Assembly (NCBI GenBank): GCA_021378565.1
Contig: JAACJU010000004.1
Span: forward strand, 1 to 64,000
DNA length: 64,000 nucleotides
Reading direction: 5' to 3'
Origin: Arcobacter sp. LC1
GTDB taxonomy: Bacteria; Campylobacterota; Campylobacteria; Campylobacterales; Arcobacteraceae
Part shown: one piece after another, positions 6,203 to 47,407 of the stretch
Layout of the letters: each line of letters begins with the position of its first letter
Numbering within the stretch: position 1 is the stretch's first letter
The notes under the pieces: generated by a model
The model's input: only the letters and a program-made list of their open reading frames with translations
Told to the model about the DNA's origin: nothing
Database searches by the model: none
Made by a program: the position numbers and the translations under genes

Positions 6203-6781
6203 TTATTTAATACCAGCTTCATTTAGTATTCTATAGTTTTTGCAACCAAGTTGAATTCCTTTATCACAAGTCATTCCAAAAAGTTTTTTTGCTTTTGTTT
6301 TGTTTTGTCCAAGACCTTGCCCATAATAATACAAAAGTCCCAAATTGTAACAAGCTTTTATGTAACTTTTATCACAAGCTTTTTTGTATAATTTACTTGT
6401 TTTAAAATAATCTTGCCTAGCCCCTTGCCCATTATAATACAAAACTCCCAAATTATAACAAGCCTTTGTATTGCCACCATCACAAGCCTTTTTGAAAAAT
6501 TCTTTTGCCTTAAAATAATCTTGCCTAGCCCCTTGCCCATCTCTGTACAAAACTCCCAAATTATCACAAGAATTCATATAACCTCTATCACAAGCCTTTT
6601 TAAAAAGTTCTTTGCCTTTAAAATAATCTTTTTTAATTCCTTTTCCTATAAAATAAGCAACTCCTAAATGGTCGCAAGATTTCATAATGCCATCATCACA
6701 AGATTTTTGCAAAGCATCAATTTTAGTGCTTGCAAAACTAAAACTTACAAGCATTAAAAATAATATAATTATTTTTTTCAT
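6203..6781 (-). CDS. Sel1-repeat cysteine-rich secreted protein (Hcp family), hcp1
   Basis: The 192-residue product has a signal peptide (MKKIIILFLMLVSFSFA) and four 36-residue Sel1-like repeats with a shorter C-terminal cap (CDKGIQLGCKNY). Each repeat opens with a cysteine and carries a second cysteine eight residues on, as in CDRGYMNSC and CDGGNTKAC, followed by LGVLYxxGQGxxQDYFKA. This is the disulfide-paired helical repeat of Helicobacter Hcp proteins, some of which bind penicillin. Location is periplasmic or secreted, and the partner is unknown. It is the last gene of the array, 41 bp after the next Hcp gene, and has ribosome site AAGGAAAG. Confidence 0.85.
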   Translation of the reverse strand: MKKIIILFLMLVSFSFASTKIDALQKSCDDGIMKSCDHLGVAYFIGKGIKKDYFKGKELFKKACDRGYMNSCDNLGVLYRDGQGARQDYFKAKEFFKKACDGGNTKACYNLGVLYYNGQGARQDYFKTSKLYKKACDKSYIKACYNLGLLYYYGQGLGQNKTKAKKLFGMTCDKGIQLGCKNYRILNEAGIK

Positions 6782-6813
6782 TTCTTTCCTTATTTTTTAG
6801 ATTAATTATAGAA

Positions 6814-6838
6814 TAGAGCTAGTTAATAACCAGCTCTA
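6814..6838 (-). terminator. Hairpin overlapping the hcp2 stop codon
   Basis: TAGAGCT...AGCTCTA arms (one mismatch, extended by GTT/AAC) enclose the stop codon of the gene at 6823-7938. The same core, GCTGGTTATTAACTAGC, is found at the end of the gene at 9226-10551, so gene ends were duplicated with their hairpins. Confidence 0.5.
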
Positions 6839-7938
6839 TCTAGTACCTTGTAATTTTTACAGCCAAGCTTATTTCTTTTATCACAAGCTTTGCCAAAAAG
6901 TTCTTTGGCTTGAGTTCTGTCTTGTCGAACTCCTTGTCCTCTATAATATAAAATTCCTAAATTGGAGCAAGCACCCATATCACCACCATCACAAGCTTTT
7001 TTGTAAAGTTCAGATGCTTTAAAATAATCTTGCCTAACTCCTTGCCCATTAACATATGAAATACCTAAATTGTAACAAGCACTTACATAACCCCCATCAC
7101 AAGCCTTTTTGTAAAGCTCAGACGCTTTAAAATAATCTTGTCTTACACCTTTTCCGCTAATATACAAGAGCCCTAGAATTGAGCAAGCACCCATATCTCC
7201 TCCATCACAAGCTTTTTTGTAAAGTTCTTTTGCCTTAAAATAATCTTGTCTTACACCTTTTCCGCTAACATGCAAAGCCCCAAAATTTGAGCAAGAACCC
7301 ATATTTCCTCCATCACAAGCTTTTTTGTAAAACATACTTGCTTTAGAATAATCTTGCTTAACTATTTTACCAGATTCGTAGATGCCCCCTAAAATTAAAC
7401 AAGAATTCATGTTCTTTCCATCACAAGCCTTTTTCAAAAGTTTAATAGTTTTTAAATAATTTCTCTTAACTCCTTTACCCCCTTCGTATAAAAATCCTAA
7501 ACTCGTACAAGCATTCATAATGCCCCCATCACAACCCTTTTTATAAAATTCACTTGCTTTAAAATAGTCTTGTTTTACTCCTGTTCCATTTTCATAAATA
7601 CTTCCTAAGGCAACACAAGCACGTGAAAACCCTCCGCTACAAGCTTTTTTAAAAAGCCTAATAGCCTTAGAATGATTTTTTTTAACTCCTGAGCCAGTAT
7701 TGTATGAAACTCCTAAATTATTGCAAGAGTTCATAATATTCCCATCACAAGCTTTTTTGAATAATTTACTTGCTTTAAAATAATCTTTTTCAACTCCTTT
7801 TCCTATAGCATATGAAAGTCCTAAGCTATCACAAGAACTCATATTTCCTTTATCACAAGCTTTTTGCAAAGCATCACTTTTAGTACTTGCAAAACTAAAA
7901 CTTGCAAGCACTAAGCAAAAAAGTATTATTTTTTTCAT
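6823..7938 (-). CDS. Sel1-repeat cysteine-rich secreted protein (Hcp family), hcp2
   Basis: A signal peptide (MKKIILFCLVLASFSFA) precedes nine 36-residue Sel1/Hcp repeats and a C-terminal cap (CDKRNKLGCKNYKVL). Cysteine pairs eight residues apart mark each unit (CDGGIMNAC, CDGGDMGAC, CDGGYVSAC). The last four repeats are nearly identical (VRQDYFKASELYKKACDGG), pointing to recent internal repeat amplification. A periplasmic or secreted superhelical solenoid for protein or peptidoglycan contact is the family expectation; the ligand is unknown. The ribosome site AAGGGAAG is shared with hcp3 and hcp4. The stop codon lies in a hairpin. Confidence 0.87.
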   Translation of the reverse strand: MKKIILFCLVLASFSFASTKSDALQKACDKGNMSSCDSLGLSYAIGKGVEKDYFKASKLFKKACDGNIMNSCNNLGVSYNTGSGVKKNHSKAIRLFKKACSGGFSRACVALGSIYENGTGVKQDYFKASEFYKKGCDGGIMNACTSLGFLYEGGKGVKRNYLKTIKLLKKACDGKNMNSCLILGGIYESGKIVKQDYSKASMFYKKACDGGNMGSCSNFGALHVSGKGVRQDYFKAKELYKKACDGGDMGACSILGLLYISGKGVRQDYFKASELYKKACDGGYVSACYNLGISYVNGQGVRQDYFKASELYKKACDGGDMGACSNLGILYYRGQGVRQDRTQAKELFGKACDKRNKLGCKNYKVLDRAGY

Positions 7939-8085
7939 TTCTTCCCTTATTTTTAAATTTTTTATAATTCTTAGATTCTAACTTAATCTATATTAAATTA
8001 TATTAGACATATTATTTATTTTAGTTTTTTACTTATAAAATAAATATTAATAGATTTTTAAAGATAACTAACGTAAAAGCTGCTA

Positions 8086-9183
8086 TTAATGCTCAGCCTC
8101 ATTTAACTTTTTATAATTTTCACAACCAAGCTCAATGCCTTTGTCACAAACTTTGCCAAAAAGCTCTTTTGCTTTAGATTTGTCCTGATTGACTCCCCGT
8201 CCATTTTTATATAAAACACCTAAAGCACCACAAGCATACATAAATCCACCATCACAAGCTTTTGTATAAAACTTAGATGCCTTAAAATAATTTTGTTTAA
8301 GACCTTGCCCGTTTTCATATGAAATTCCCAACATATAGCAAGCAGTTGCGACACCTCTATCGCAAGATTTTTTAAATAGTTTATTTGCTTTAAAATAATC
8401 TTGTTTGACTCCTTGTCCATTATTATATAAAATTCCCAGAAGGTAGCAAGTATTAATCATCCCCGCATCGCAAGTCTTTGTCCAAAGTTTAAAAGCTTTA
8501 AAATAATCTCGCTTAACACCTCTTCCTTTATAAAATAAAGTGCCTAAGGCACCACAGGAATGAATATTGCCTCCATCGCAAGCTTTTGTCCAAAGAGTAA
8601 AAGCTTTAAAATAATCTCGCTTAACCCCTTGTCCATGATCGTACAAAGAACCCAATGCACCACAAGAATTTATAATGCCGTTATTGCAAGCTTTGGTAAA
8701 AATCTTTTTTGCCTTAAAGAAATTTTGATGAACTCTTTTTCCAATTAAATATAGCATTCCTAACTTATCGCAAGATTTCATATTTCCTTTATCACAAGCT
8801 TTTTGCAAAGTATCACTTTTTGAACTAGAGCTTGCTACATTTAATCTCTTATAGGATTTACATCCAATTTTATTTCCTTGATTGCAAGTCTTGCCGTATA
8901 GTTTTTTTGCTTTAATTATGTCTTGCTTAGTGCCTCTGCCATATTCGTATGAAATTCCTACAAAATTACAAGAAGCAATAAAATTCCCATCACAAGCCTT
9001 TTTAAAAAAATTAAAAGCTTTAAAAAGATTTTTTTGTACTCCTTTTCCATATGAGTACAAAATTCCCAAATCAGTACAAGATTTCATATTTCCACTATCA
9101 CAAGCTTTTTGTAAAGTATCGCTTTTTGAACTTGCAAAGCTAAAATTTACAAGTATCAAGCAAAAAAGTATTATTTTTTTCAT
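8086..9183 (-). CDS. Sel1/Hcp secreted protein with two fused repeat domains, hcp3
   Basis: After the signal peptide, the protein has two Hcp units and a cap-like CNQGNKIGCKSYKRLN ending near residue 115. It then continues NVASSSSKSDTLQKACDKGNMKSC, a second copy of the mature N-terminus seen at residues 18-36 (SSKSDTLQKACDSGNMKSC). Six more repeats and a true cap (CDKGIELGCENYKKLN) follow. I read this as an in-frame fusion of the end of one Hcp gene to the mature start of another, with no signal peptide left at the junction. It is exported like its neighbours, and the ligand is unknown. It lies 42 bp downstream of hcp4 with no promoter visible, so the two are probably co-transcribed. Confidence 0.85.
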   Translation of the reverse strand: MKKIILFCLILVNFSFASSKSDTLQKACDSGNMKSCTDLGILYSYGKGVQKNLFKAFNFFKKACDGNFIASCNFVGISYEYGRGTKQDIIKAKKLYGKTCNQGNKIGCKSYKRLNVASSSSKSDTLQKACDKGNMKSCDKLGMLYLIGKRVHQNFFKAKKIFTKACNNGIINSCGALGSLYDHGQGVKRDYFKAFTLWTKACDGGNIHSCGALGTLFYKGRGVKRDYFKAFKLWTKTCDAGMINTCYLLGILYNNGQGVKQDYFKANKLFKKSCDRGVATACYMLGISYENGQGLKQNYFKASKFYTKACDGGFMYACGALGVLYKNGRGVNQDKSKAKELFGKVCDKGIELGCENYKKLNEAEH

Positions 9184-9215
9184 TTCTTCCCTTATTTCAT
9201 AAACTAATTCTATTT

Positions 9216-9237
9216 AAAAAGCTAGTTAATAACCAGC
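9216..9237 (-). terminator. Hairpin at the hcp4 stop codon
   Basis: The minus strand reads GCTGGTTATTAACTAGC followed by TTTTTAAA. The stem includes the stop codon of the gene at 9226-10551. It may give partial termination before hcp3. Confidence 0.5.
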
Positions 9238-10551
9238 ATTGTTCAATCTTAAATAATTTTTACAACCAAGCTTAAGTCCATTATCACAAGCTTTTTTATA
9301 AAGCTCCTTCGCCTTTGTCTTGTTTTGCTTAAATCCATGTCCAAATTCATACGAAACTCCTAAAGCAGCACAAGCACTCATATTGCTTTTATCGCAAGTC
9401 TTTTTAAAAAGTTGATTAGCTTTAAAATAATCTCGTCTAACCCCTTTTCCATCCCAATATGAACTTCCCAACAAAAAGCAAGCACCCATATCGTTTCTAT
9501 TGCAAGCTTTCTTAAAAAGCATACTAGCTTTATAGTAATTTTGCTTAACTCCTTTTCCAAGCTCATACAGAATTCCTAAGCTAGTACAAGATTTTATATT
9601 GCCTCCATCACAAGCTTTTTTCAAAATATTACTTCTAGATTTTTTAAAACTAGAACTTGCTTCATTTAGTATTTTGTAATGTTTGCATCCAAGCTCATAT
9701 CCTTTATCGCAAACTTTGCCGTAAAGTTCTTTTGCTTTAGTTATATTTTGTCTGACACCACGTCCTTCATCGTATAAAATTCCTAATTTATAACAAGCCT
9801 TCACAATGTTATTATCACAATCTTTTTTCCAAATTTTGCTTTCTTTGAAATAATTTGTTTCAGCTGGATGTCCACTACTATTCGAATTTTCTAAATTATC
9901 ACAAGCATGCATATTGCCCCCATCACAAGCTTTTTTCCAAATTTTGTTGGCTTTAGAGTAACTTTGTTTTACTCCTTTTCCATCAGAGTACAGATTACCT
10001 AAACTGATACAAGCATCTGTGTCGCCTTGATTGCAAGCTTTTTGAAAGTATTTACTAGCTTTTAAATAATCTTGTTTAACATCCTTCCCTCTTTCATATT
10101 GAAGCCCCTTCAATTCATCGCTATTAGTAATTGTTGTCACAATCATAATGCGATTAGCACTTGAAAAACTAGAACTTGCCTTATTTAGTCCTTTATAGTA
10201 TTTACATCCATCTCTATCTCCCTTATCACAAGCTTTCCCATAAAATTCTTTTGCTTTATTTTTATCTATCCCTACTCCTTTGCCAGATTCGTATAAAAAC
10301 CCTAGGTAATTACAAGCATTCGTAAGTCTTCCGTCACAAGCCTTTTTATATAGTTTTATTGCTTTAAATCTATCTTTTTTAACCCCAATATTATATGAGT
10401 CTCCTAAAGCAACACAAGACTTCATATTGCCTTTATTACAAGCTTTTTGCAAAGCCACATTATCCTTATGAACTTTTTGCAAAGCCACATTTTGACAAGC
10501 AATAAAACTAAAGCTTACAAGCACCAAACATAAAATAATTATTTTTTTCAT
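9226..10551 (-). CDS. Sel1/Hcp repeat protein with three fused domains, possible lipoprotein, hcp4
   Basis: At 441 residues this is the longest member. The signal sequence ends FSFIAC, giving a lipobox-like cysteine at 19 that other members lack, so it may be lipidated. A small tandem repeat (NVALQKVHKDNVALQKA) follows. Two internal caps (GCKYYKGLNKASSS, GCKHYKILNEASSS) each run into a new repeat block, as in hcp3, so three ancestral units seem joined. The middle block is degenerate: residues about 127-150 (SSANRIMIVTTITNSDE) do not fit the repeat, and the unit beginning DNLENSNSSGHP has lost its loop. The promoter box at 10584-10616 lies 33 bp upstream. Confidence 0.82.
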   Translation of the reverse strand: MKKIIILCLVLVSFSFIACQNVALQKVHKDNVALQKACNKGNMKSCVALGDSYNIGVKKDRFKAIKLYKKACDGRLTNACNYLGFLYESGKGVGIDKNKAKEFYGKACDKGDRDGCKYYKGLNKASSSFSSANRIMIVTTITNSDELKGLQYERGKDVKQDYLKASKYFQKACNQGDTDACISLGNLYSDGKGVKQSYSKANKIWKKACDGGNMHACDNLENSNSSGHPAETNYFKESKIWKKDCDNNIVKACYKLGILYDEGRGVRQNITKAKELYGKVCDKGYELGCKHYKILNEASSSFKKSRSNILKKACDGGNIKSCTSLGILYELGKGVKQNYYKASMLFKKACNRNDMGACFLLGSSYWDGKGVRRDYFKANQLFKKTCDKSNMSACAALGVSYEFGHGFKQNKTKAKELYKKACDNGLKLGCKNYLRLNNAGY

Positions 10552-10583
10552 TTCTTCCCTTATTTTTAAACTTTTAAATACTT

Positions 10584-10616
10584 ATATTTTATCTTAGCTT
10601 TTGTTAAAATAAAATT
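10584..10616 (-). promoter_or_regulatory. 33-bp conserved promoter box upstream of hcp4
   Basis: This segment matches 12734-12766, upstream of hcp6, at 32 of 33 positions. On the minus strand it holds GATAAAAT, an extended -10, placed 33 bp before the hcp4 start. On the plus strand it holds TTTTGTTAAAAT, which would also serve as a -10. Confidence 0.55.
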
Positions 10617-10760
10617 ATTATTTGTTTTTTAAATTTTGAGTATTTGTAGTATATTTATTTTTGTAGAATTAAATTAAAATATTCTATAGAAGAAAAGAGA
10701 AAAGCAAAAGAGAAAAGAAAGAAAAAAGCTAAAAAATAAAAATGCTAAATATTAAGAGTC

Positions 10761-11048
10761 TTAATATCCAGCATCACTTAGTGTTTTATAATGCTTACAA
10801 GCTTCTTTTATTCCCCCATTACAAGATCTATAAAATAACTGCTTTGCTTGTGATTTGTCTTGCTCTAGCCCACCTTTTCCTTTGCTGTATAAAAATGCTA
10901 AGTGATAGCAACCAACCAAGTTTCCATTTTGGCATTTGTTTTGATAAATCTTATAATAGGTTTGATTTCTAACTGTTTTTTTCTCATATTCAAGCACTAG
11001 CAAAACAACGACTATTAATATAATTATACCGATTAGCATTTTTTTCAT
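10761..11048 (-). CDS. Mini Hcp protein with membrane anchor, hcp5
   Basis: The 95-residue product starts with an uncleaved-looking hydrophobic segment (residues 4-20, LIGIIILIVVVLLVL). It then has a single Sel1-like unit (CQNGNLVGCYHLAFLYSKGKGG) and a cap (CNGGIKEACKHYKTLSDAGY). It is therefore a one-repeat, membrane-anchored relative of the larger Hcp proteins around it. The cap ends in the same AGY as hcp2 and hcp4. The role is unknown; such a short form cannot make a superhelix and may be an accessory or inhibitor. A decayed second copy lies just upstream at 11174-11360. A plus-strand frame over the same DNA is a shadow. Confidence 0.75.
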   Translation of the reverse strand: MKKMLIGIIILIVVVLLVLEYEKKTVRNQTYYKIYQNKCQNGNLVGCYHLAFLYSKGKGGLEQDKSQAKQLFYRSCNGGIKEACKHYKTLSDAGY

Positions 11049-11173
11049 TTTTTACCTTATGTTTTTTAGTTTAATACTTGTATTCTAGCCAAGCCTAGCT
11101 TAGACTAATTCAGTTCGCATTAAAATAAATTTATTATTTTAGTTATTTTATTATTTGTATTCTATAAAAATTT

Positions 11174-11360
11174 CTAGTAATAAGCATCTCTTAGTTTTTT
11201 ATAAAATTTACAGCTTTCTTTTATTCCACCCTTGCAAGCTTTTCCAAATAAATATCTTGCTTTTGATTTGTTTTACTCCGTCTTTTCCTTTGTCATATAA
11301 AAATCTTGGTTGATAGCAGTTCACTAGATTTCTTCTGCGATATCTAGTTTGATACAATTT
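11174..11360 (-). pseudogene. Decayed copy of the mini Hcp gene (hcp5 paralogue)
   Basis: Reading the minus strand, one frame gives LYQTRYRRRNLVNCYQPRFL then YDKGKDGVKQ. Another frame continues KARYLFGKACKGG then IKESCKFYKKLRDAYY and a TAG at 11174-11176. These align in order with hcp5 (IYQNKCQNGNLVGCYHLAFL, QAKQLFYRSCNGG, IKEACKHYKTLSDAGY). A small deletion at the join, about 5 bp judged against the intact pattern KQDKSKA, shifts the frame. The upstream part has stops and no start or membrane segment, and one repeat cysteine is lost. It fills most of the 425-bp gap between hcp6 and hcp5. Confidence 0.75.
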
Positions 11361-11452
11361 TTTTTAAGCTTATTTTTATCTTAGAAATAAGTTCAAAAAG
11401 AAGTTTGAAAGCAAGCTTAGAAATAGGTTTTTAAAAAGAGAAGTTTTAAGTT

Positions 11453-11475
11453 AAGACTAGCTAAAAGCTAGCCTT
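11453..11475 (-). terminator. Hairpin after hcp6
   Basis: AAGACTAGC and GCTAGCCTT arms (one mismatch) surround TAAAA and reach the hcp6 stop codon. It separates hcp6 from the decayed copy. Confidence 0.5.
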
Positions 11476-12688
11476 ATTTTAGTCTTTTGTATTCTTTACA
11501 TCCAAGTTCAAGCCCTTTATCACAAATCTTTTTAAAGAGTCTTTTGGCTGTACTTGTACTTTTTTTAACCCCATGCCCACTTTCATATAAAAATCCTAAA
11601 AGTCCGCAAGCATGCACATAGCCACCATAGCAAGCTTTTTTGTAAAGTTTACTAGCACTATAATAACTATGTTTAACTCCATGCCCTTCTTCATATAAAA
11701 TTCCTAGATTAGCACAAGCATTCATATGCCCACCATAGCAAGCTTTTCTAAAAAGTTTCCCAGCGCTGTAAAAACTTCGCTTAACTCCCTTGCCTTTTAC
11801 ATATAAAAGTCCTAAATCAAAGCAAGAATCTACATTTCCTTTATTGCAAGCTTTTAAATAATAGTTTTTTGCTTGGTGAGTATTTTTTTTGACTCCATAT
11901 CCTTCTTCATAAAAAATACCTAGATTAGCACAAGCAAGTGCATCTCCTTTTCTGCAAGCTTTTTTGTAAAATTTGGTAGCTTCATTGTAACTTTGCTTAA
12001 CTCCATGCCCTCTTGCGTAAGAAATCCCTAAAAAGCCACAAGAACTTGCTAGCCCTTTATCACAAGATATTTTAAAAAGTCTATTTGCTGTAGTATAATT
12101 TTGTCTAACACCTTGCCCTTTTACATAAAAAATTCCTAAATCACCACAAGCACTTATAAGTCCAGCATTGCAAGCTTTTGTATATAAGGTGCTTGCCTTA
12201 GAATAACTTTGCTTAACACCTTGCCCATTGGCATATAAAATTCCTAAATTATAACAAGAGTTTACAACACCACCATAACAAGCCTTTTCAAAAAGTTTAC
12301 TTGCTTTATAATGACTTTTTCTAACTCCTCGCCCAAGTGTGTATAAAACTCCTAGATTACTGCAAGAACGCATATCTCCTCTATCACAAGCTTTTTTGTA
12401 AAGTTTTCTTGCCTCGTGGTAATTGTGTCTAACACCTTGCCCGTAGTCATATAAAATTCCTAGATTTCCGCAAGAGTTTGCAAAGCCTCTATCACAAGCT
12501 TTTTTATAAAATATTCTTGCTTCACGATAATTATGTCTAACACCTTGCCCTTTGTCATACATTACTCCCAAGCTGTCACATGCATTCATATTGCCTTTAT
12601 AGCAAGCTTTTCGTAAACTAATGCTTTTAGAATTAGCGAAGCTAAAAGCTATAAATACCAAGCATAGAAAAATTATAATTTTTTTCAT
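11474..12688 (-). CDS. Sel1-repeat cysteine-rich secreted protein (Hcp family), hcp6
   Basis: The product has 404 residues: a signal peptide (MKKIIIFLCLVFIAFSFA), ten 36-residue Sel1/Hcp repeats and a cap (CDKGLELGCKEYKRLK). Repeat loops differ from the other members: GQGVRHNYREA and GHGVKxSYYSASKL replace the QDYFKA form. This copy therefore diverged earlier or was recruited to a different ligand. All units keep the cysteine pair (CDRGFANSC, CYGGHMNAC, CYGGYVHAC). A periplasmic or secreted location is expected. It is the first gene of the array, and its promoter box at 12734-12766 is shared with hcp4. A plain ATG follows CGGAGTGATGA. Confidence 0.86.
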   Translation of the reverse strand: MKKIIIFLCLVFIAFSFANSKSISLRKACYKGNMNACDSLGVMYDKGQGVRHNYREARIFYKKACDRGFANSCGNLGILYDYGQGVRHNYHEARKLYKKACDRGDMRSCSNLGVLYTLGRGVRKSHYKASKLFEKACYGGVVNSCYNLGILYANGQGVKQSYSKASTLYTKACNAGLISACGDLGIFYVKGQGVRQNYTTANRLFKISCDKGLASSCGFLGISYARGHGVKQSYNEATKFYKKACRKGDALACANLGIFYEEGYGVKKNTHQAKNYYLKACNKGNVDSCFDLGLLYVKGKGVKRSFYSAGKLFRKACYGGHMNACANLGILYEEGHGVKHSYYSASKLYKKACYGGYVHACGLLGFLYESGHGVKKSTSTAKRLFKKICDKGLELGCKEYKRLK

Positions 12689-36355: not shown

Positions 36356-38854
36356 ATGCAGTATAACCCGCAAGAAATAGAAAAAAAATGGCAAAATACT
36401 TGGCAAGAAACTGGGGCTTTTGAGCCTTCAGATGATAAAACTAAGAAAAAAAAATATATTTTAAGTATGTTTCCTTACCCCAGCGGTAAGATTCATATGG
36501 GGCATGTTAGAAATTATTGCTTAGGTGACGCTTTTGCTAGACATTTTAGAGCGCAGGGTTTTAATGTACTTCATCCAATAGGTTGGGATAGTTTTGGAAT
36601 GCCTGCTGAAAATGCTGCAATAAAACACAAACTTCATCCAAAAAAATGGACTTACGAAAATATTGCTTATATGAAAAAAGAGTTAAATTCTCTTGGACTT
36701 TCTTTTAGTAAGACCCAAGAATTTGCAACTTCTGATGAACTTTATACAAAATTTGAACAAGAATTTATCATTAAAATGTATGAAAAAGGCTTGTTATATA
36801 GAAAAAATAGCACCTTAAATTGGTGTAATTCTTGTCAAACTGTTTTAGCAAATGAACAAGTTGAAGATGGGCTTTGTTGGAGATGTTCTAGCGAAGTTAC
36901 TCAAAAGCAAATGTCAGGATATTATATTAAAATCACTAAATACGCAGATGAGTTACTTGAAGATTTAAAGCTTTTAGAAAACACTTGGCCAAAGCAAGTA
37001 ATAAATATGCAAAAAAATTGGATAGGAAAAAGTCAAGGCTTGGAATTTGATTTTACTCTTGAAGAAAAAAGCAAAGAAAAACTAAAAAATAACTTCACAA
37101 CTTACAGCGTTTTTACAACAAGAGCAGATACAATCTACGGACTAACTTACAGCGCTTTAGCACCAGAGCATGATATTGTAAAATATTTAATTAGTCATAA
37201 GCTTCTAAGCGATGAAAAAATTAAAAGTATAAAAGCTATGCAAAATCTTAGTGCAAAAGCCTTACAAACTCAGGATAAAGAGGGAGTTTTTTTAGATATT
37301 TATGCTCTTCATCCTTTAACTAAAGAAAAAATACCTATTTGGACTGCAAATTTTGTTTTGAATACTTATGGTGGCGGTGCTGTTATGGCTGTGCCTGCTC
37401 ATGATGAAAGAGATTTTGAATTTGCAAGTAAATATAATCTTGATATAAAAGTAGTTATCCAAAATCCTAAAGAAAATCAAGAAGAAAATCAACATCTAAA
37501 AACTGCTTACACAAATCAAGGAATACTGGTAAATAGTGGGGACTTTTCAGGACTTAAAAGTATAGAAGCAAAAGAAAAAATAATTTCTTATTTTGAAAAA
37601 AATAATCTAGGGCGAAGAAAAATAAATTATAAATTAAGAGATTGGGGTATTTCAAGACAAAGATATTGGGGCGCACCTATTCCTTTTGTTCATTGTGAAA
37701 AATGCGGACTTGTTCCACAAGATTTAAAAAACTTACCTATTACTTTACCTGATGATATTGTGTTAACAGGAGAGGGAAATCCACTAAGCTCACATAAAAC
37801 GTGGCAAGAAGATACTTGCCCAAAATGCAAGTCTAGGGCTTTAAGGGAAACTGATACTCTTGATACTTTTGTGCAAAGTTCTTGGTATTTTTTAAGATAT
37901 GCAACATCATATAAAAAATATCCAAATATAGGAATAGACAAAAATGATGCTGATTATTGGATGGATGTTGACCAATATATTGGAGGCATTGAGCATGCTA
38001 TTTTGCACCTTCTTTATGCACGATTTTTTACCAAAGCTTTAAGAGACTTAGGATATACAAATTCTAGCGAGCCTTTTAAATCTTTATTAACGCAAGGAAT
38101 GGTTTTAAAAGATGGCGCTAAAATGAGTAAATCAAAAGGAAATGTTGTTGATCCTGACCATATAATCAAAAAATATGGTGCTGATACTGCTAGGCTTTTT
38201 ATACTTTTCGCAGCACCTCCAACAAAAGAATTAGAATGGAATGATAGCGCGCTAGAAGGTGCTTTTAGGTTTATCAAAAAATTCTATGAACGCTCAACTA
38301 TTCTTGAAGCAAAAGATTTTAAAAGTGGAGATTTTCAAAAAGAAGCTTTTGAGCTTGAAAATATAGACCAGGCGAGCCTAAATACTGAAGAAAAATATGC
38401 AAGGCGAAAAGTTTATGAAGCCTTAGAAAAATCTTTTGACGTCTTCGCTAAAACTTATGCTTTCAATACCTTAATAGCGTCTTGTATGGAAGCTTTAAAC
38501 GCTCTAAATGCTCAAGAAAATAAAATTATTCTTTTAGAAGCTTATTGTGTTCTAAGCAAAATTTTAGAACCTATTATTCCTCATGTTTGTTATGAAATTA
38601 GCCAAAAACTTTTTAATCTTAAAAATTTAAATATTGTAATAGGGATTCCAAATGGAGTTTTTGAGCAAGATTTTATTAATATTGCGCTTACGATAAATGG
38701 TAAAAAAAGACTAGAATTAAAAATCAGTCCAAAACAAAGCAAAGAAGAAGTTTTAAGCTTGGCCAAGAATGAAGCAAAAAAATATCTTGAGGGTAAAACC
38801 TTAATCAAAGAAATCTATGTGCCAAATAAACTGGTAAATTTTGTCCTAAAGTAG
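36356..38854 (+). CDS. leuS: Leucyl-tRNA synthetase
   Basis: This 832-residue class Ia synthetase has the HIGH-type motif in [15 protein letters not shown] at about 41-55 and zinc-finger cysteines (CNSCQ...CWRC). The editing domain ([24 protein letters not shown]) is in the middle and the KMSKS loop ([10 protein letters not shown]) at about 590. It charges tRNA(Leu) and edits wrong amino acids. Length is normal. It is downstream of secF and upstream of lptE, as in C. jejuni. No odd features are seen. Confidence 0.96.
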
Positions 38855-38858
38855 TGAA

Positions 38859-39410
38859 ATGAAAAATAAACTTTTTACCAAGAAATTTCTTTTTATACCT
38901 TTATTGGCGGCTTTATCTGGAGCCTTATTTTCAATCTTGCTTCTTAACTCTTGTGCTTATAAGCCTTCAAGCGTTTATGTCTCTCAAGTTCTTGGAAAAA
39001 AAGTTTATGCCAAGGTGCTTGTAAATGCAGAAGATCCTAAAAACTCCGTTGCTTTAAAAGACGCCCTTGATGAAGTTATCTTGAATCAATTTCATCTTAT
39101 TTTGGTATCAAATGCAAGCGAGGCTGATACTTTTATGAATATTTCTTTAAATTCTATTTCTTTTGATCCTATTGAATACGATGCGAATGGCTACGTAAAT
39201 ATTTATAGAGCAAATATAAGTTTAAATCTAAGCTATACCTACAAAGGAAAAACAGGAAGTATAAGTAAAAGTTCTAGCGAAGAATTTTCTATCCAAGGAG
39301 GAAGCACAATCTCAGCTATTCAAAGATATACAGCGATAAAAAATGCAGCACAAAAAGCGCTAAATAAAATGGTATCTTTACTAGCCTTTAGAGGGTATAA
39401 TGCAAAATAA
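38859..39410 (+). CDS. lptE: LPS assembly lipoprotein LptE-like
   Basis: The 183-residue protein has a long signal peptide ending in lipobox LLNSC (cysteine at about 32), followed by AYKPSS. Alternating strands end in a helix (IQRYTAIKNAAQKALNKMVSLL). LptE sits with LptD in the outer membrane for lipopolysaccharide export. The assignment rests on the lipobox, size and the leuS-lptE gene order common in Gram-negatives; sequence conservation of LptE is low. It lies 4 bp after leuS and overlaps folC by 11 bp. Confidence 0.75.
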   Translation: MKNKLFTKKFLFIPLLAALSGALFSILLLNSCAYKPSSVYVSQVLGKKVYAKVLVNAEDPKNSVALKDALDEVILNQFHLILVSNASEADTFMNISLNSISFDPIEYDANGYVNIYRANISLNLSYTYKGKTGSISKSSSEEFSIQGGSTISAIQRYTAIKNAAQKALNKMVSLLAFRGYNAK

Positions 39411-40527
39411 TTTTGAATCTGAAGACTTAGCAAGTTTTTTAGAAAACAAAAGTTTATTTTATGATAAAATTGATTTTTCTTATGTAGCAAAAGCTTATGA
39501 GCTTTTAAAACCACATATAACTTTGCCCTTTGTTATTCATATAGTTGGCACAAATGGTAAAGGAAGTACGGGAAGATTTTTAGCACATTATTTACATAAA
39601 AAAGATTTTAAGGTTTTACATTATTCATCTCCACATATACTAAATTTTTGTGAGAGAATTTGGCTAAATGGTAAAGATATTGATGAATTAAGTCTTGAAT
39701 TAGCACATAAAAATTTGCAAAAAATTTTTGATGCCAAACTTTTAAAAAAGCTTACTTACTTTGAATACACTACACTTTTAGCTATTTTTCTTAGTTCAAA
39801 AAAAGATTATTTAGTTCTTGAAGCTGGACTTGGTGGAGAATATGACGCTACAAATGTAGTTAAAAATGATTTAAGTATTATTACAAAAATTGGGCTAGAC
39901 CATCAAGAATTTTTAGGAAATACAATAGAAGAAATTACAAAAACAAAGCTTAGAGCGTGTGATAACAAAATGCTTTTAGCACTCCAAGAATTTCCTGAAG
40001 TTTTGGAGCTTGCTAAAGATTATGATTATTTTTTGGCTAAAGAATTTGACACTTCTAGTCTAGAACTTCCAAAATTTTTAAAACAAAATTTAAATACAGC
40101 ACTTAGTGCTTTGGAATATCTTGGCATTGAGATTGACCTTGATTTATTAAAAGATTGTCAAATATTTGGAAGATGTCAAAAAATAAATGAAAATATCACT
40201 ATTGATGTAGGGCACAATCCCCAAGGCGCAAAAGCTCTGCTAAAAGAATTTCAAGACAAAAAAATAAATCTTGTTTATGCTTCTTTAGAAATTAAAGACT
40301 ACGCTTTGGTTTTACAAATTCTTAAACCCATAATAAAAAAAGTATTTTTATTGGATATTCAAAATGATAAAATGGCAAAAAAAGAAGATTTAATCAAAGT
40401 ATTGAAAAAATTAAATCTTGATTTCGAAGATTTTAAAGGCATTGACAAGCAAAAAGAATATCTTGTTTTTGGTTCATTTCTCTGCGTGGAATACTTCTTA
40501 AATACATATATATTTTTACGAAGATGA
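39400..40527 (+). CDS. folC: Folylpolyglutamate synthase / dihydrofolate synthase
   Basis: The 375-residue Mur-ligase-type enzyme has the ATP loop HIVGTNGKGSTGRFL at about 46-60, SSPHILNFCERI, LEAGLGGEYDATNV and KIGLDHQEFLGNTIEEI. It adds glutamate to dihydropteroate and folates. It is somewhat shorter than E. coli FolC (422) at the C-terminal domain. It overlaps lptE upstream, and the helicase gene downstream overlaps its stop by 4 bp (ATGA), so all three are one unit. Confidence 0.9.
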   Translation: MQNNFESEDLASFLENKSLFYDKIDFSYVAKAYELLKPHITLPFVIHIVGTNGKGSTGRFLAHYLHKKDFKVLHYSSPHILNFCERIWLNGKDIDELSLELAHKNLQKIFDAKLLKKLTYFEYTTLLAIFLSSKKDYLVLEAGLGGEYDATNVVKNDLSIITKIGLDHQEFLGNTIEEITKTKLRACDNKMLLALQEFPEVLELAKDYDYFLAKEFDTSSLELPKFLKQNLNTALSALEYLGIEIDLDLLKDCQIFGRCQKINENITIDVGHNPQGAKALLKEFQDKKINLVYASLEIKDYALVLQILKPIIKKVFLLDIQNDKMAKKEDLIKVLKKLNLDFEDFKGIDKQKEYLVFGSFLCVEYFLNTYIFLRR

Positions 40528-42653
40528 CAAACTTAGAAAAAAACTTAGCAAGGCTAAAAGAGCTACAAAAACAAAAAAATATTATTGAAGAAGAAATTAC
40601 CACTCTTCAAAAAAAAATACAAAAAACATATTCAAGGCAAGATAGAGTAAATATTTTCTCTAAACTTTTTATTAATCGCTTTGATAAATACGCTAAACTT
40701 TGGCAAAGTAAGGATAAAAATATACAAAAATTTTACCCTGCAACAAAAACTTTCAGGGGTGAGGATTATTTATTTTTAGATGATTTTATGCTTGAAGAGC
40801 ATTTACTTGGCAAAGTAGTTTTAGCCACTTACATTTTAAATCAAAAAAATGAAAGTAAATATCTAGTGTTAAAAACTCCAAAGGCACAGAAGCTAAAACT
40901 CGATTTTCTTTTAAAAGATTTGGAAATTTTTGTTTACTATGAAAAAATATCGCTTAATTATTTTCATGCTTGGATATTTTTCGATGATTTTATAAGCTCT
41001 TGTGATTTGCTAAATTTTTGTGCTTTAATCTTCTCAAAACTAAAAACAAAATTTCCAAGCTATCCTTCCAAAACTTTTACAAGTCCAAGCGAAGTTGGCG
41101 AAGTCATAGCTTTGCCTTTGCAATTTTTTAGAAGAGAAGCGTCTGAAACTATATTTTTTGATATAGAAAATGAAAAACCTATAAAAAATACTTGGGCATT
41201 TTTGGATAATGTAAAAAGAAATAAAAGTGAAAAATTAAAAACCTTGCTAGGCTTTTATGATTTGAGAGCAGACAAGCAAAGTGAAGATGAAAATAAAATT
41301 GAGAAAAATAAAGAGCTAATATTAGAGCTAAGCGATAGAATTTATCTATCTCAAAAATACCTAAATAAAAAAATAAGCCTTTATCTAAAAAATCTTGTAA
41401 GCTTTGAAAACCCACAAATAAAAATACTTTTAAAACTTAGAAAACCACTTTTTGGAGTAGACAGAATACTAAAAGATTTTGAAGAAAATGAAAAATACCT
41501 TATTTTGCCTAGAGGAGTCTTAGATAAAATAAAAGTTTATTTTGAAGATTTGGGCTTAAAATATAGTATTTTAGATAAGCGAAAAAATGAAAAATCAAGC
41601 AAGATATTAAACTTAGTTTTCAGCCCAAAAGAAGAGCAAAAAATCTCTTTAAAAAATATTTTAAAATATGATTTTAGCGTTTGCGTTGCGCCTCCTGGTT
41701 TTGGAAAAACTTTTTTAGCCTCAAGTGTCTTAGCAAATAGAGGTGTAAAAACTTTGGTTTTAGTAAATAAAAATATCTTGCTTGAGCAGTGGATTGAGCG
41801 TTTTATGCAATACTTCAATTTAGAAAAAAAAGATATTGGATTTTTGGCTAAGAGCAAAAATACTTTAAATGGTGAGCTTGATGTAGCCTCCATGCAATCG
41901 CTTAAAAATTCCTTATCATTAATAAAAAATTATTCTTTTGTTATTGTTGATGAATGTCATCATATTCCTGCTTTTTCTTTTGAAAATATTATAAAAAATT
42001 TTTGTGGAAAATATCTTTTAGGACTTAGCGCAACACCTATGAGAAAAGATGGCTTGGAAAAAATCCTTTATCATCAGCTTGGAAAAATATCTTATGAGCA
42101 TAAAAATATTAGAACTTTTAACAATAAGGTTTTTGTTATTAAAAGTGATTTTAGAGGAGATTTTTCTTCTTTTGCTAGTCTTTTAACAGCGCTTTGTAAA
42201 GATGAAAAAAGAAATACTTTGCTTTGTGATTTGATTTTAAAAAATCAAGAAAGAAAAATACTTCTTTTGAGCGACAGAATAGAACATCTTAATATTTTGA
42301 GTGCAAAGCTTCAAATCTTAGGAAAAAAACACTTAGTTTTACATGGGCAATTAGCTAAAAAAGTTCAAGAAAAAGCCATGAAAGAAGCAGGAAGTGCAGA
42401 GCTTATTTTGGCTTCTTCATCATTTTTTGGAGAGGGTATGGATTTTGCGCATTTAAACACTATAATTTTTGCTACACCGATTTCATTTTATGCAAGATTA
42501 GTTCAATATCTTGGGCGAATTGGACGAAGCGGAGAAGAGTGCTTGGCTTTTGATATCTTGGATTCTTCTAACGCTATGCTTAAATCTTCTTTTAATAAAA
42601 GAAAATTAGCCTATAAAAAAATGTTTTATAATATTATTTATGATAAACTCTAA
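40524..42653 (+). CDS. TOTE-like primase-domain / superfamily 2 helicase fusion protein
   Basis: The 709-residue protein starts with a coiled coil (1-36). Residues about 45-235 follow the layout of the archaeo-eukaryotic primase domain found in TOTE-type conflict proteins: LFINRFDKYAKLW, HAWIFFDDF, VIALPLQFF, TWAFLDNVKR. The place where I expect the first metal-binding aspartates reads LVLKTPKAQK, so the primase is probably inactive. From about 370 comes an SF2 helicase: Walker A APPGFGKT (~390), DECHH (~476), SATPMRKDG, and motif VI QYLGRIGRSG. The helicase half looks intact. It is fused into the folC operon by a 4-bp overlap. Role unknown; genome defence or repair is inferred. Confidence 0.75.
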   Translation: MTNLEKNLARLKELQKQKNIIEEEITTLQKKIQKTYSRQDRVNIFSKLFINRFDKYAKLWQSKDKNIQKFYPATKTFRGEDYLFLDDFMLEEHLLGKVVLATYILNQKNESKYLVLKTPKAQKLKLDFLLKDLEIFVYYEKISLNYFHAWIFFDDFISSCDLLNFCALIFSKLKTKFPSYPSKTFTSPSEVGEVIALPLQFFRREASETIFFDIENEKPIKNTWAFLDNVKRNKSEKLKTLLGFYDLRADKQSEDENKIEKNKELILELSDRIYLSQKYLNKKISLYLKNLVSFENPQIKILLKLRKPLFGVDRILKDFEENEKYLILPRGVLDKIKVYFEDLGLKYSILDKRKNEKSSKILNLVFSPKEEQKISLKNILKYDFSVCVAPPGFGKTFLASSVLANRGVKTLVLVNKNILLEQWIERFMQYFNLEKKDIGFLAKSKNTLNGELDVASMQSLKNSLSLIKNYSFVIVDECHHIPAFSFENIIKNFCGKYLLGLSATPMRKDGLEKILYHQLGKISYEHKNIRTFNNKVFVIKSDFRGDFSSFASLLTALCKDEKRNTLLCDLILKNQERKILLLSDRIEHLNILSAKLQILGKKHLVLHGQLAKKVQEKAMKEAGSAELILASSSFFGEGMDFAHLNTIIFATPISFYARLVQYLGRIGRSGEECLAFDILDSSNAMLKSSFNKRKLAYKKMFYNIIYDKL

Positions 42654-45613: not shown

Positions 45614-46048
45614 ATGAAAAAGATTATTATTTTACTTTTTATTTTTTGCGGATTTCTTTTTGCAAGTAATTATTTTTATATGCAAAATAATAAAAAAATA
45701 ATGTTAAAAAAAGTACAACCTACACAAAGTAACAAGCAATTACAAGTAAATAGTTTAAATTCTAAAAATCCTAATAGTTCTAATTCTTCGGTTGATTATT
45801 ATACTTTTAATTCAGGTGCTAGAGTGGGTATTGATAATACTTTGGTGGTAGGATTTAAAGACTTGACTAACCTAAAAAAATATGAAAATACCTATCACAT
45901 TACTTTTATAAAAGATTTAGGCTTAAAAATGTATGTTTTTTCTTGCCTAGATAAAAGTAAGACTTTGGGTATTGCAAATGAACTAAGTAAAAAAAATGAT
46001 ATACTTTTTGCGCAACCAAAGCTTATTCAAGCACTTAAACTTCAATAA
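45614..46048 (+). CDS. Secreted protein resembling a subtilase propeptide
   Basis: The 144-residue product has a signal peptide (MKKIIILLFIFCGFLFA), a low-complexity Asn/Ser/Gln linker (about 30-62) and a compact domain with NTLVVGFKDLTNLKKY, LGLKMYVFSC and ANELSKKNDILFAQPKL. The last string resembles the end of subtilase prodomains, where strand and 'VxxAxPN' elements fill the active site. The gene just downstream, on the same strand, encodes a subtilase that has no prodomain of its own. I infer a chaperone/inhibitor supplied in trans. The 153-bp gap upstream has an AT-rich promoter-like TATATAAAAT. Confidence 0.6.
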   Translation: MKKIIILLFIFCGFLFASNYFYMQNNKKIMLKKVQPTQSNKQLQVNSLNSKNPNSSNSSVDYYTFNSGARVGIDNTLVVGFKDLTNLKKYENTYHITFIKDLGLKMYVFSCLDKSKTLGIANELSKKNDILFAQPKLIQALKLQ

Positions 46049-46141
46049 AATATTTAATAAAAACTATTTTTAATTTTTCTTAAATGCAAAAATGTGCTAT
46101 ACTCAGAATATATTAGATTTTATTTTGAAAAGAGTTGAAGT

Positions 46142-47407
46142 TTGAGAAGATATCTTATAATTATTTTATTTATTGCTTCTTTGTTTTTTGCATCTTGTGG
46201 AAGTGATGATGATTCAGACTCCTACGCAAGTGTTTGTTCTTCTGATTATGTTTTTGGTTTTGCTTCTAGAGATATTTTTCAAAATGATGGAAATTCAAAC
46301 CCTTTATGGAAGACGCAATGGGATTTGCATGCAAATCATGGAATTTTTGGAAATCCAAGCATACATGCAAGTGCTAGTCTTATAAGAAATAATGGTGGAC
46401 ATACAGTAACTATAGCTATTCTTGATGATGGTTTTAATCTTAATCATGAAGATTTAAAAGGTTTAAATGTCATACGAAAATGGAATACAGCTTATTCTTA
46501 TGATAATTCAACTACATCAGACCCTAGTCAAGATATTAGTGAAGATCCAAATAATAAAGAGGATCACGGTACAGCAACACTTGGAATAATTGCAGCGAGA
46601 GATAATAATGTTGGTATTATGGGACTTGCAACTACATCTAATTATCAATTTATACTTGTAAAAATGTGTTTTGATGATGCCTGCCTAAAAAATCAAATTT
46701 ATACTACGTCTGAAATTTTTAGAAAAGTTCAAAGTTGGAATCCTCAAGTTATTTCTTGTTCTTGGGGAACTGTTCAGCGAGGAGGATTATCGCCTTATGA
46801 TAGAGCAACCATTGCAAGTGTTGCAAAAGGTGAAAACAAAAATGGTAAATTAACATACCCTAATGGTGTAAATGTAGTTTTTTCTAGTGGCAATGGAGAA
46901 AACAAAAATGGTCAAAATTATGGTGTTGACATTTCAAATGAAGCCAATATTCCTGAAGTTATAAGCGTAGGAGCTAGCAATTCTTTTAATAGAATTGCAC
47001 ATTATAGCAATTATGGAGAAAATCTTGATTTAGTAGCTCCTGGAGGTGGATATTATCATCCTGATATGCTAGGTATTCCAACATTATATGGCCATTTTAA
47101 TAATAGTTACTACTATTATAATAGCAAAAATTCATTTATAGGAACTTCAGCATCAGCACCTTTAGTATCAGGAGCTATTGCTTTAATTTTAGCAAAAAAT
47201 CCAAATTTAACAAGACCTAAGATTATAAATATTTTGCATTCTACTAGCGACAAAATAAGCTTTTATAGAGAAAATTTAGGAACGAAACGAAATCCTATAA
47301 TGAGATTAGAAACTTGCAATTACGACTCAGCAGGTTTTAGTAAGCATTGTGCTTACGGAAAATTAAATTTAGAAAAAGCACTTGCAAAAGTTCCAAATCC
47401 CTCTTAA
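46142..47407 (+). CDS. Lipoprotein subtilisin-like serine protease (S8)
   Basis: From TTG 46142 the 421-residue product has a signal peptide and lipobox FASC (cysteine at 19), so it should be membrane-tethered. The S8 triad is visible: aspartate in AILDDGFN (~95), histidine in DHGTAT (142) and serine in GTSASAP (336), with SSGNGENKNG as the oxyanion region. The segment between the lipobox and the triad (about 20-85) is too short and unlike a prodomain, while a prodomain-like protein is encoded 93 bp upstream. It cuts proteins in the periplasm or at the surface; the target is unknown. There is no autotransporter part. Confidence 0.83.
   Translation: MRRYLIIILFIASLFFASCGSDDDSDSYASVCSSDYVFGFASRDIFQNDGNSNPLWKTQWDLHANHGIFGNPSIHASASLIRNNGGHTVTIAILDDGFNLNHEDLKGLNVIRKWNTAYSYDNSTTSDPSQDISEDPNNKEDHGTATLGIIAARDNNVGIMGLATTSNYQFILVKMCFDDACLKNQIYTTSEIFRKVQSWNPQVISCSWGTVQRGGLSPYDRATIASVAKGENKNGKLTYPNGVNVVFSSGNGENKNGQNYGVDISNEANIPEVISVGASNSFNRIAHYSNYGENLDLVAPGGGYYHPDMLGIPTLYGHFNNSYYYYNSKNSFIGTSASAPLVSGAIALILAKNPNLTRPKIINILHSTSDKISFYRENLGTKRNPIMRLETCNYDSAGFSKHCAYGKLNLEKALAKVPNPS

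What the first reader, a model, noticed from the sequence alone, without database searches (positions are those of the whole stretch)
40524..42653. TOTE-like primase-helicase fusion with a decayed primase, embedded in the folC operon
The protein matches, block by block from memory, the archaeo-eukaryotic-primase plus SF2 helicase proteins of TOTE-type conflict systems (HAWIFF, IALPLQ, TWAFLDN; then APPGFGKT, DECHH, SATPMRKDG). The presumed metal-binding aspartates are replaced (LVLKTPK), while the helicase motifs are intact. It is translationally coupled to folC in a housekeeping operon instead of standing in a defence island. This suggests domestication of a conflict-system enzyme for repair or for sensing foreign DNA.
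Basis: partly seen in the sequence, partly recalled or inferred. Interest (0 to 1): 0.7.

Follow-up and report, generated by a model that had tools for sequence, protein, structure and literature searches.

The report
Chromosomal helicase with a dead primase
In the Arcobacter family, a DNA-priming and DNA-unwinding enzyme normally found on plasmids and beside toxin genes has become a fixed chromosomal gene whose priming half has lost every residue needed for catalysis while its unwinding motor stays intact, so it probably now serves the cell's own DNA upkeep.

Summary
The 709-aa ORF at 40524-42653 is a coiled coil + AEP (TOTE-type) primase-fold domain + XPB/UvsW-like SF2 helicase, translationally coupled (ATGA) to folC. 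The window lies in an Arcobacteraceae genome. Orthologues occur in 62 of 73 family genomes sampled, mostly in the leuS-lptE-folC operon, form one clade, and track FolC/LeuS divergence (Mantel r 0.95-0.97): vertical inheritance. Every folC-locus copy has lost both motif I aspartates and the motif III aspartate, most also the motif II histidine, with intact helicase motifs. The 30-odd mobile relatives, some on Aliarcobacter plasmids beside AbiE toxin-antitoxin genes, keep the catalytic residues. The dead domain still folds as a primase (model pLDDT 88; best PDB match MpCAPP, TM 0.75) and is under purifying selection (dN/dS about 0.12). In three genera it has been excised, leaving coiled coil + helicase. 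Best reading: a domesticated TOTE-type enzyme, now a chromosomal branched-DNA translocase with a non-catalytic AEP module; the function is inferred. In passing: DUF1882 (HP0184), a Campylobacterota core protein beside glyA, is a second degenerate AEP, absent from the glyA locus of the Arcobacteraceae examined.

The parts
40524..42653 (+). gene of the coiled-coil / dead-AEP / SF2-helicase protein (709 aa)
40530..40616 (+). N-terminal helix aa 3-31, predicted coiled coil; retained even where the primase domain is deleted
   Evidence: helix in full-length model; same type of N-terminus in helicase-only orthologues
40635..41258 (+). AEP (TOTE-type) primase-fold domain, aa 38-245, catalytically dead
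   Evidence: Pfam; model and fold match; profile match to 7nqd, E 2e-20
40863..40883 (+). motif I site, LVLKTPK aa 114-120 in place of (A/V)IDLDK: both metal-binding Asp lost
40941..40973 (+). motif II site aa 140-150, EKISLNYFHAW: His148 kept here, glycines lost
41055..41072 (+). motif III site aa 178-183, PSYPSK in place of (Y/F)DR(L/M)FPNQD: Asp and about 9 residues lost
41310..41618 (+). middle domain aa 263-365, in the position of the XPB/UvsW N-terminal DNA-recognition domain
   Evidence: full-length model matches T4 UvsW and XPB; phmmer match to archaeal RAD25/XPB starts at aa 338
41619..42629 (+). SF2 helicase core aa 366-702 with intact APPGFGKT (389-396), DECHH (476-480), SATP (502-505), QYLGRIGR (661-668)
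39400..40527 (+). folC (Mur ligase family), overlaps the gene by ATGA
38859..39410 (+). lptE, same operon
   Evidence: synteny
36356..38854 (+). leuS, same operon
   Evidence: synteny

Best explanation
A TOTE-type primase-helicase of the kind carried by plasmids and conflict-gene clusters entered the leuS-lptE-folC operon of an ancestor of the Arcobacteraceae and was domesticated. Its primase catalytic site was removed while the fold was kept; the helicase became the working part. Proposed action: the N-terminal coiled coil oligomerises the protein; the AEP module, unable to bind catalytic metals, serves as a passive DNA-binding or positioning surface; the XPB/UvsW-like motor with its recognition domain translocates on branched or damaged chromosomal DNA (forks, D-loops, R-loops) in house-keeping repair or recombination. 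Shown: homology, domain architecture, loss of catalytic residues across the family, intact motor motifs, vertical inheritance, purifying selection, in-frame excision of the primase domain in three genera. Inferred: DNA-binding role of the dead domain, oligomerisation, substrate and pathway.
For: AEP-TOTE and helicase matches. The domain model built only from decayed sequences matches MpCAPP PrimPol at TM 0.75, then HP0184, LigD polymerase and PrimPolC. The full-length model matches T4 UvsW and XPB best. folC-locus copies are dead and mobile copies intact; residues lost are exactly those invariant in mobile copies at motifs I-III, whereas HLxG, W150, P198, R204 and W224 persist. The AxA mutant of MpCAPP has no detectable polymerase or primase activity (PMC8211822). 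One clade, 100/100 support. Distances track FolC and LeuS, r 0.97 and 0.95. dN/dS primase 0.12, helicase 0.07 (85 pairs). Helicase-only orthologues keep the coiled coil.
Against: No functional data. The gene is dispensable: absent from 11 of 73 family genomes. A motor of this type also occurs in restriction and defence proteins, so the helicase fold does not by itself indicate repair. The helicase-only forms show that the AEP module is not essential to the core function.
Confidence: 0.55

Rival explanations
1. It is still a defence protein: a chromosomally fixed surveillance translocase that senses or blocks incoming DNA, the dead primase recognising foreign replication or transfer intermediates.
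For: Nearest relatives sit with AbiEi/AbiEii, AAA_14, HsdR and Dcm genes and on plasmids; patchy loss in 11 of 73 genomes is usual for defence genes.
Against: No conflict gene recurs around the folC-locus copies examined; vertical inheritance with FolC; low dN/dS with no sign of diversification.
Confidence: 0.25
2. It is an antidote: the dead copy forms mixed oligomers through the shared coiled coil with plasmid-borne active relatives and poisons them, protecting the chromosome.
For: The coiled coil is kept even in helicase-only forms; intact relatives occur on Arcobacteraceae plasmids.
Against: Two Aliarcobacter-group genomes (G385, G399) carry both copies; about 38% identity makes mixed oligomers doubtful; helicase-only forms are kept.
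Confidence: 0.07
3. A protein in slow decay: the primase half drifts neutrally and only the helicase is kept.
For: Faster evolution of the primase half (dN ratio 1.8), erosion in genus g2, excision in three genera, stop codons or frame breaks in some genomes.
Against: dN/dS about 0.12 in the dead domain; invariant residues new to the clade such as E91; a confident fold.
Confidence: 0.09
4. The primase is still active with a rearranged metal site.
For: Most orthologues, not this one, have Glu at the first Asp position, and about half have Asp three residues on.
Against: This protein has K-T-P-K there and no acidic residue at motif III; the third acidic residue is lost across the clade.
Confidence: 0.04

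Closest known systems
TOTE-type AEP primase + SF2 helicase proteins (Pfam PF22548 AEP-TOTE), mobile copies in Campylobacterota and on Aliarcobacter plasmids
   Same: Same order of coiled coil, AEP, middle domain and SF2 helicase; 37-40% identity over the whole length
   Different: Mobile copies keep DxD, GxH and motif III Asp and often neighbour AbiE, AAA_14 or restriction genes; this one is dead at the primase and sits in a housekeeping operon
CRISPR-associated primase-polymerase CAPP, helicase-fused type (PMC8211822); structure of Marinitoga CAPP 7NQD
   Same: Same AEP subfamily fold (TM 0.75; profile E 2e-20); the paper reports that the commonest non-CRISPR architecture carries a putative helicase domain, and that such proteins lie on mobile elements
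   Different: CAPP is catalytically active with an intact DxD; no CRISPR context was looked for or seen around this gene
T4 UvsW and XPB-family SF2 translocases
   Same: Best structural matches of the full-length model; sequence match to XPBII, E about 3e-16
   Different: Neither has an AEP domain; no TFIIH or Bax1 partner was looked for
DUF1882 / HP0184 (PDB 2ATZ)
   Same: Degenerate AEP-fold protein of Campylobacterota encoded by a folate-pathway gene (glyA); ranks 7th in the fold search; listed with a 'Prim-pol domain' fold in PMC3397514
   Different: 180-aa stand-alone protein without helicase, at another locus; keeps the first Asp and the His

Membership tests
AEP-TOTE primase domain family (PF22548) | Profile match above the curated cut-off over the domain | tested here: met
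   101.4 bits vs 27, positions 2-229 of 230
AEP-TOTE primase domain family (PF22548) | Primase-polymerase fold | tested here: met
   AlphaFold2 model pLDDT 87.7; best PDB matches are CAPP Prim-Pols
AEP-TOTE primase domain family (PF22548) | Catalytic motifs DxD, sxH, hD | tested here: not met
   Both motif I Asp and the motif III Asp lost, in the orthologous clade as a whole
TOTE conflict system | AEP fused to an SF2 helicase | tested here: met
TOTE conflict system | Association with conflict genes or mobile elements | tested here: not met
   leuS-lptE-folC operon in most genera, vertical inheritance. The system's definition in the literature could not be read: no paper in the library holds the term
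Active PrimPol | Primer synthesis or DNA extension | not testable with these tools
   needs purified protein
XPB/UvsW-type SF2 helicase | Complete helicase motifs and an N-terminal recognition domain | tested here: met
   motifs invariant; full-length model aligns with UvsW and XPB
XPB/UvsW-type SF2 helicase | ATP-dependent DNA translocation or branch migration | not testable with these tools
   needs an assay

The most novel reading that the evidence does not exclude
The dead primase is a dedicated sensor: it has given up catalysis to become a ligand-binding (primer-template or nucleotide) switch that controls a chromosomal translocase. With the glyA-linked DUF1882 protein it would show that Campylobacterota twice turned AEP primases into non-catalytic modules placed beside folate genes (folC, glyA), possibly linking the supply of DNA precursors to DNA maintenance.
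Probability: 0.1. Interest if true: 0.8.

Novelty: new variant of a known kind. Interest (0 to 1): 0.5.

Why it matters
It is a clean natural series from a mobile primase-helicase to a chromosomal helper: intact copies on plasmids, dead but conserved copies in the core operon, and copies from which the dead domain has been cut out. That makes the question 'what does a primase domain do for a helicase when it cannot prime' directly testable in culturable Aliarcobacter and Malaciobacter strains. Current names ('DEAD/DEAH box helicase family protein' for the plasmid relatives) hide this.

Tried and rejected
A single-sequence scan of genome contigs returned nothing; the alignment-based scan worked. 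Intact copies at the folC locus were sought and none found. Shifted catalytic residues were sought by alignment to MpCAPP and not found in this protein. The idea that DUF1882 and this gene replace each other was weakened: genus g7 of the family lacks both, and G106 outside the family lacks DUF1882 and shows only a weak helicase hit. A phage origin of the whole protein was not supported: phage records match only the helicase half, under 30% identity. Plain chance was rejected by profile, fold and orthologue evidence. The primer-initiation structure paper of CAPP is not held, so the domain's DNA contacts were not mapped.

Full report
What is there. The ORF at 40524-42653 encodes 709 aa and begins inside the folC stop codon (ATGA), after leuS and lptE. 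Pfam places an AEP-TOTE primase domain at aa 41-240 (101.4 bits, cut-off 27) and an SF2 helicase at aa 368-670. It is the only copy in its genome, which is 99.8% complete.

Where it comes from. Contigs of related genomes match, by length, named Arcobacteraceae records (Arcobacter sp. CECT 8985, Poseidonibacter lekithochrous, Malaciobacter halophilus), so the window lies in an Arcobacteraceae genome, of a genus with no other genome in the sample. By my count, 62 of 73 genomes of the family hold an orthologue: 43 full length, 4 with an eroded N-terminus (genus g2), 2 broken by a contig end or frame, 13 with only the helicase part (genera g6, g11, g13). Eleven have none.

The primase is dead in the whole clade. 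In relatives outside this locus the motifs read FL(A/V)IDLDK, SKSGNGIHIW and (Y/F)DR(L/M)FPNQD, and the five key residues D, D, S, H, D are intact wherever present. In folC-locus copies the first Asp is mostly Glu, or Lys, Gln or Ser; the second is lost in all but some of the eroded g2 forms, where alignment is doubtful; the motif III Asp is gone with about 9 residues; the His survives only in this protein and two other early-branching lineages (L123/L020 and L051). Helicase motifs do not vary. A column-by-column comparison shows that what was invariant in mobile copies and lost here clusters at the three catalytic motifs, whereas HLxG, W150, P198, R204 and W224 persist. PMC4538821 states that these motifs are essential for catalysis, and the AxA mutant of MpCAPP was inactive (PMC8211822).

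It still folds and is still selected. A model of the domain made only from decayed sequences has pLDDT 87.7 and finds the CAPP Prim-Pol structures first (TM 0.75), then HP0184, LigD polymerase domains and PrimPolC. A profile of the decayed domains finds CAPP by sequence alone (E 2e-20). Median dN/dS over 85 close pairs is 0.12 for the dead domain, 0.07 for the helicase; in mobile copies (only 6 pairs) the halves are equal at about 0.08. The dead domain is thus relaxed about 1.8-fold in dN but far from neutral.

Domestication. The folC-locus copies, helicase-only forms included, form one clade with full support. With the non-Campylobacterota relatives as outgroup, the Campylobacterota mobile copies are the sister group, so the loss of the aspartates is derived; the root itself was not tested. 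Pairwise distances follow FolC (r 0.97) and LeuS (r 0.95) in 29 loci plus the window. Gene order leuS-lptE-folC is kept, with or without an M23 peptidase and bactofilin pair between folC and this gene, and often an Na/H exchanger after it. No conflict gene recurs there. By contrast, many mobile relatives lie next to AbiEi-AbiEii pairs or AAA_14 proteins, some near HsdR and Dcm, and on plasmids of Aliarcobacter, Arcobacter, Acinetobacter, Escherichia and others. Arcobacter vandammei (loci L129 and L160) and genomes G385 and G399 carry both kinds.

The next step of decay. In g6, g11 and g13 the primase domain is missing from inside the protein: the N-terminal coiled coil is joined directly to the middle domain and helicase. 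In g11 and g13 this form still sits at the folC locus where the contig shows it; in g6 the gene follows der instead. The persistent core is coiled coil + recognition domain + motor.

How it works, inferred. The full-length model resembles T4 UvsW and XPB, translocases that remodel branched or damaged DNA (general knowledge). I therefore favour a chromosomal branched-DNA translocase assisted by a non-catalytic AEP module. A retained defence role is the main rival. Nothing here measures activity.

Side result. DUF1882 proteins (HP0184, PDB 2ATZ), encoded between glyA and a SPOR-like gene in the loci examined and present in 119 of 150 Campylobacterota genomes sampled, match AEP-TOTE weakly (two of four tested above the Pfam cut-off of 27 bits, 29.6 and 27.7) and match the decayed-domain profile (hhalign probability 88%); the crystal structure ranks seventh in the fold search. 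PMC3397514 already lists 2ATZ with a Prim-pol domain fold, so the fold is known; the tie to TOTE-type primases and the exact absence of the gene from the Arcobacteraceae glyA loci examined I did not find described. HP0184 is called non-essential in PMC6294363.

Limits. No paper in the library mentions a TOTE conflict system, so that label rests on the Pfam name. The window's own protein is on a long branch, so its exact place in the clade is unsure.

Noticed in passing
L094:3656-4195, L098:3278-3817, L111:3037-3576 (glyA loci): DUF1882 (HP0184, 2ATZ), a widespread Campylobacterota protein encoded after glyA, is a degenerate stand-alone AEP domain related to AEP-TOTE; the gene is missing from the syntenic glyA locus of the window's genome and of the 8 other Arcobacteraceae genomes examined there.
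   Followed up: partly
L102:6792-10517, L103:7177-10902, L105, L107, L108, L141, L147, L153, L170, L216: Catalytically intact TOTE-type primase-helicase genes of Campylobacterota often follow an AbiEi-AbiEii toxin-antitoxin pair directly, as a three-gene module, sometimes on Arcobacteraceae plasmids; others follow an AAA_14 ATPase gene.
   Followed up: partly
L163:5926-7350, L164:5926-7356, L180:5926-7356: In-frame internal excision of the whole primase domain, leaving the coiled coil joined to the middle domain and helicase; in genus g6 the gene has moved behind der (engA).
   Followed up: yes
L108:6958-9152 (G385:C2, plasmid of Aliarcobacter faecis, hit H6): The plasmid-borne TOTE gene is split into two frames in this record, while the chromosomal folC-locus copy of the same genome is present.
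   Followed up: no
window 6203-12688 (-): Cluster of paralogous secreted Sel1-repeat proteins (at least five ORFs of 190-440 aa); Sel1 confirmed by Pfam for two of them.
   Followed up: no
window 45614-47407 (+): A subtilase gene (46142-47407) is preceded by a separate 144-aa secreted ORF with no Pfam match that looks like a free-standing propeptide or inhibitor.
   Followed up: no
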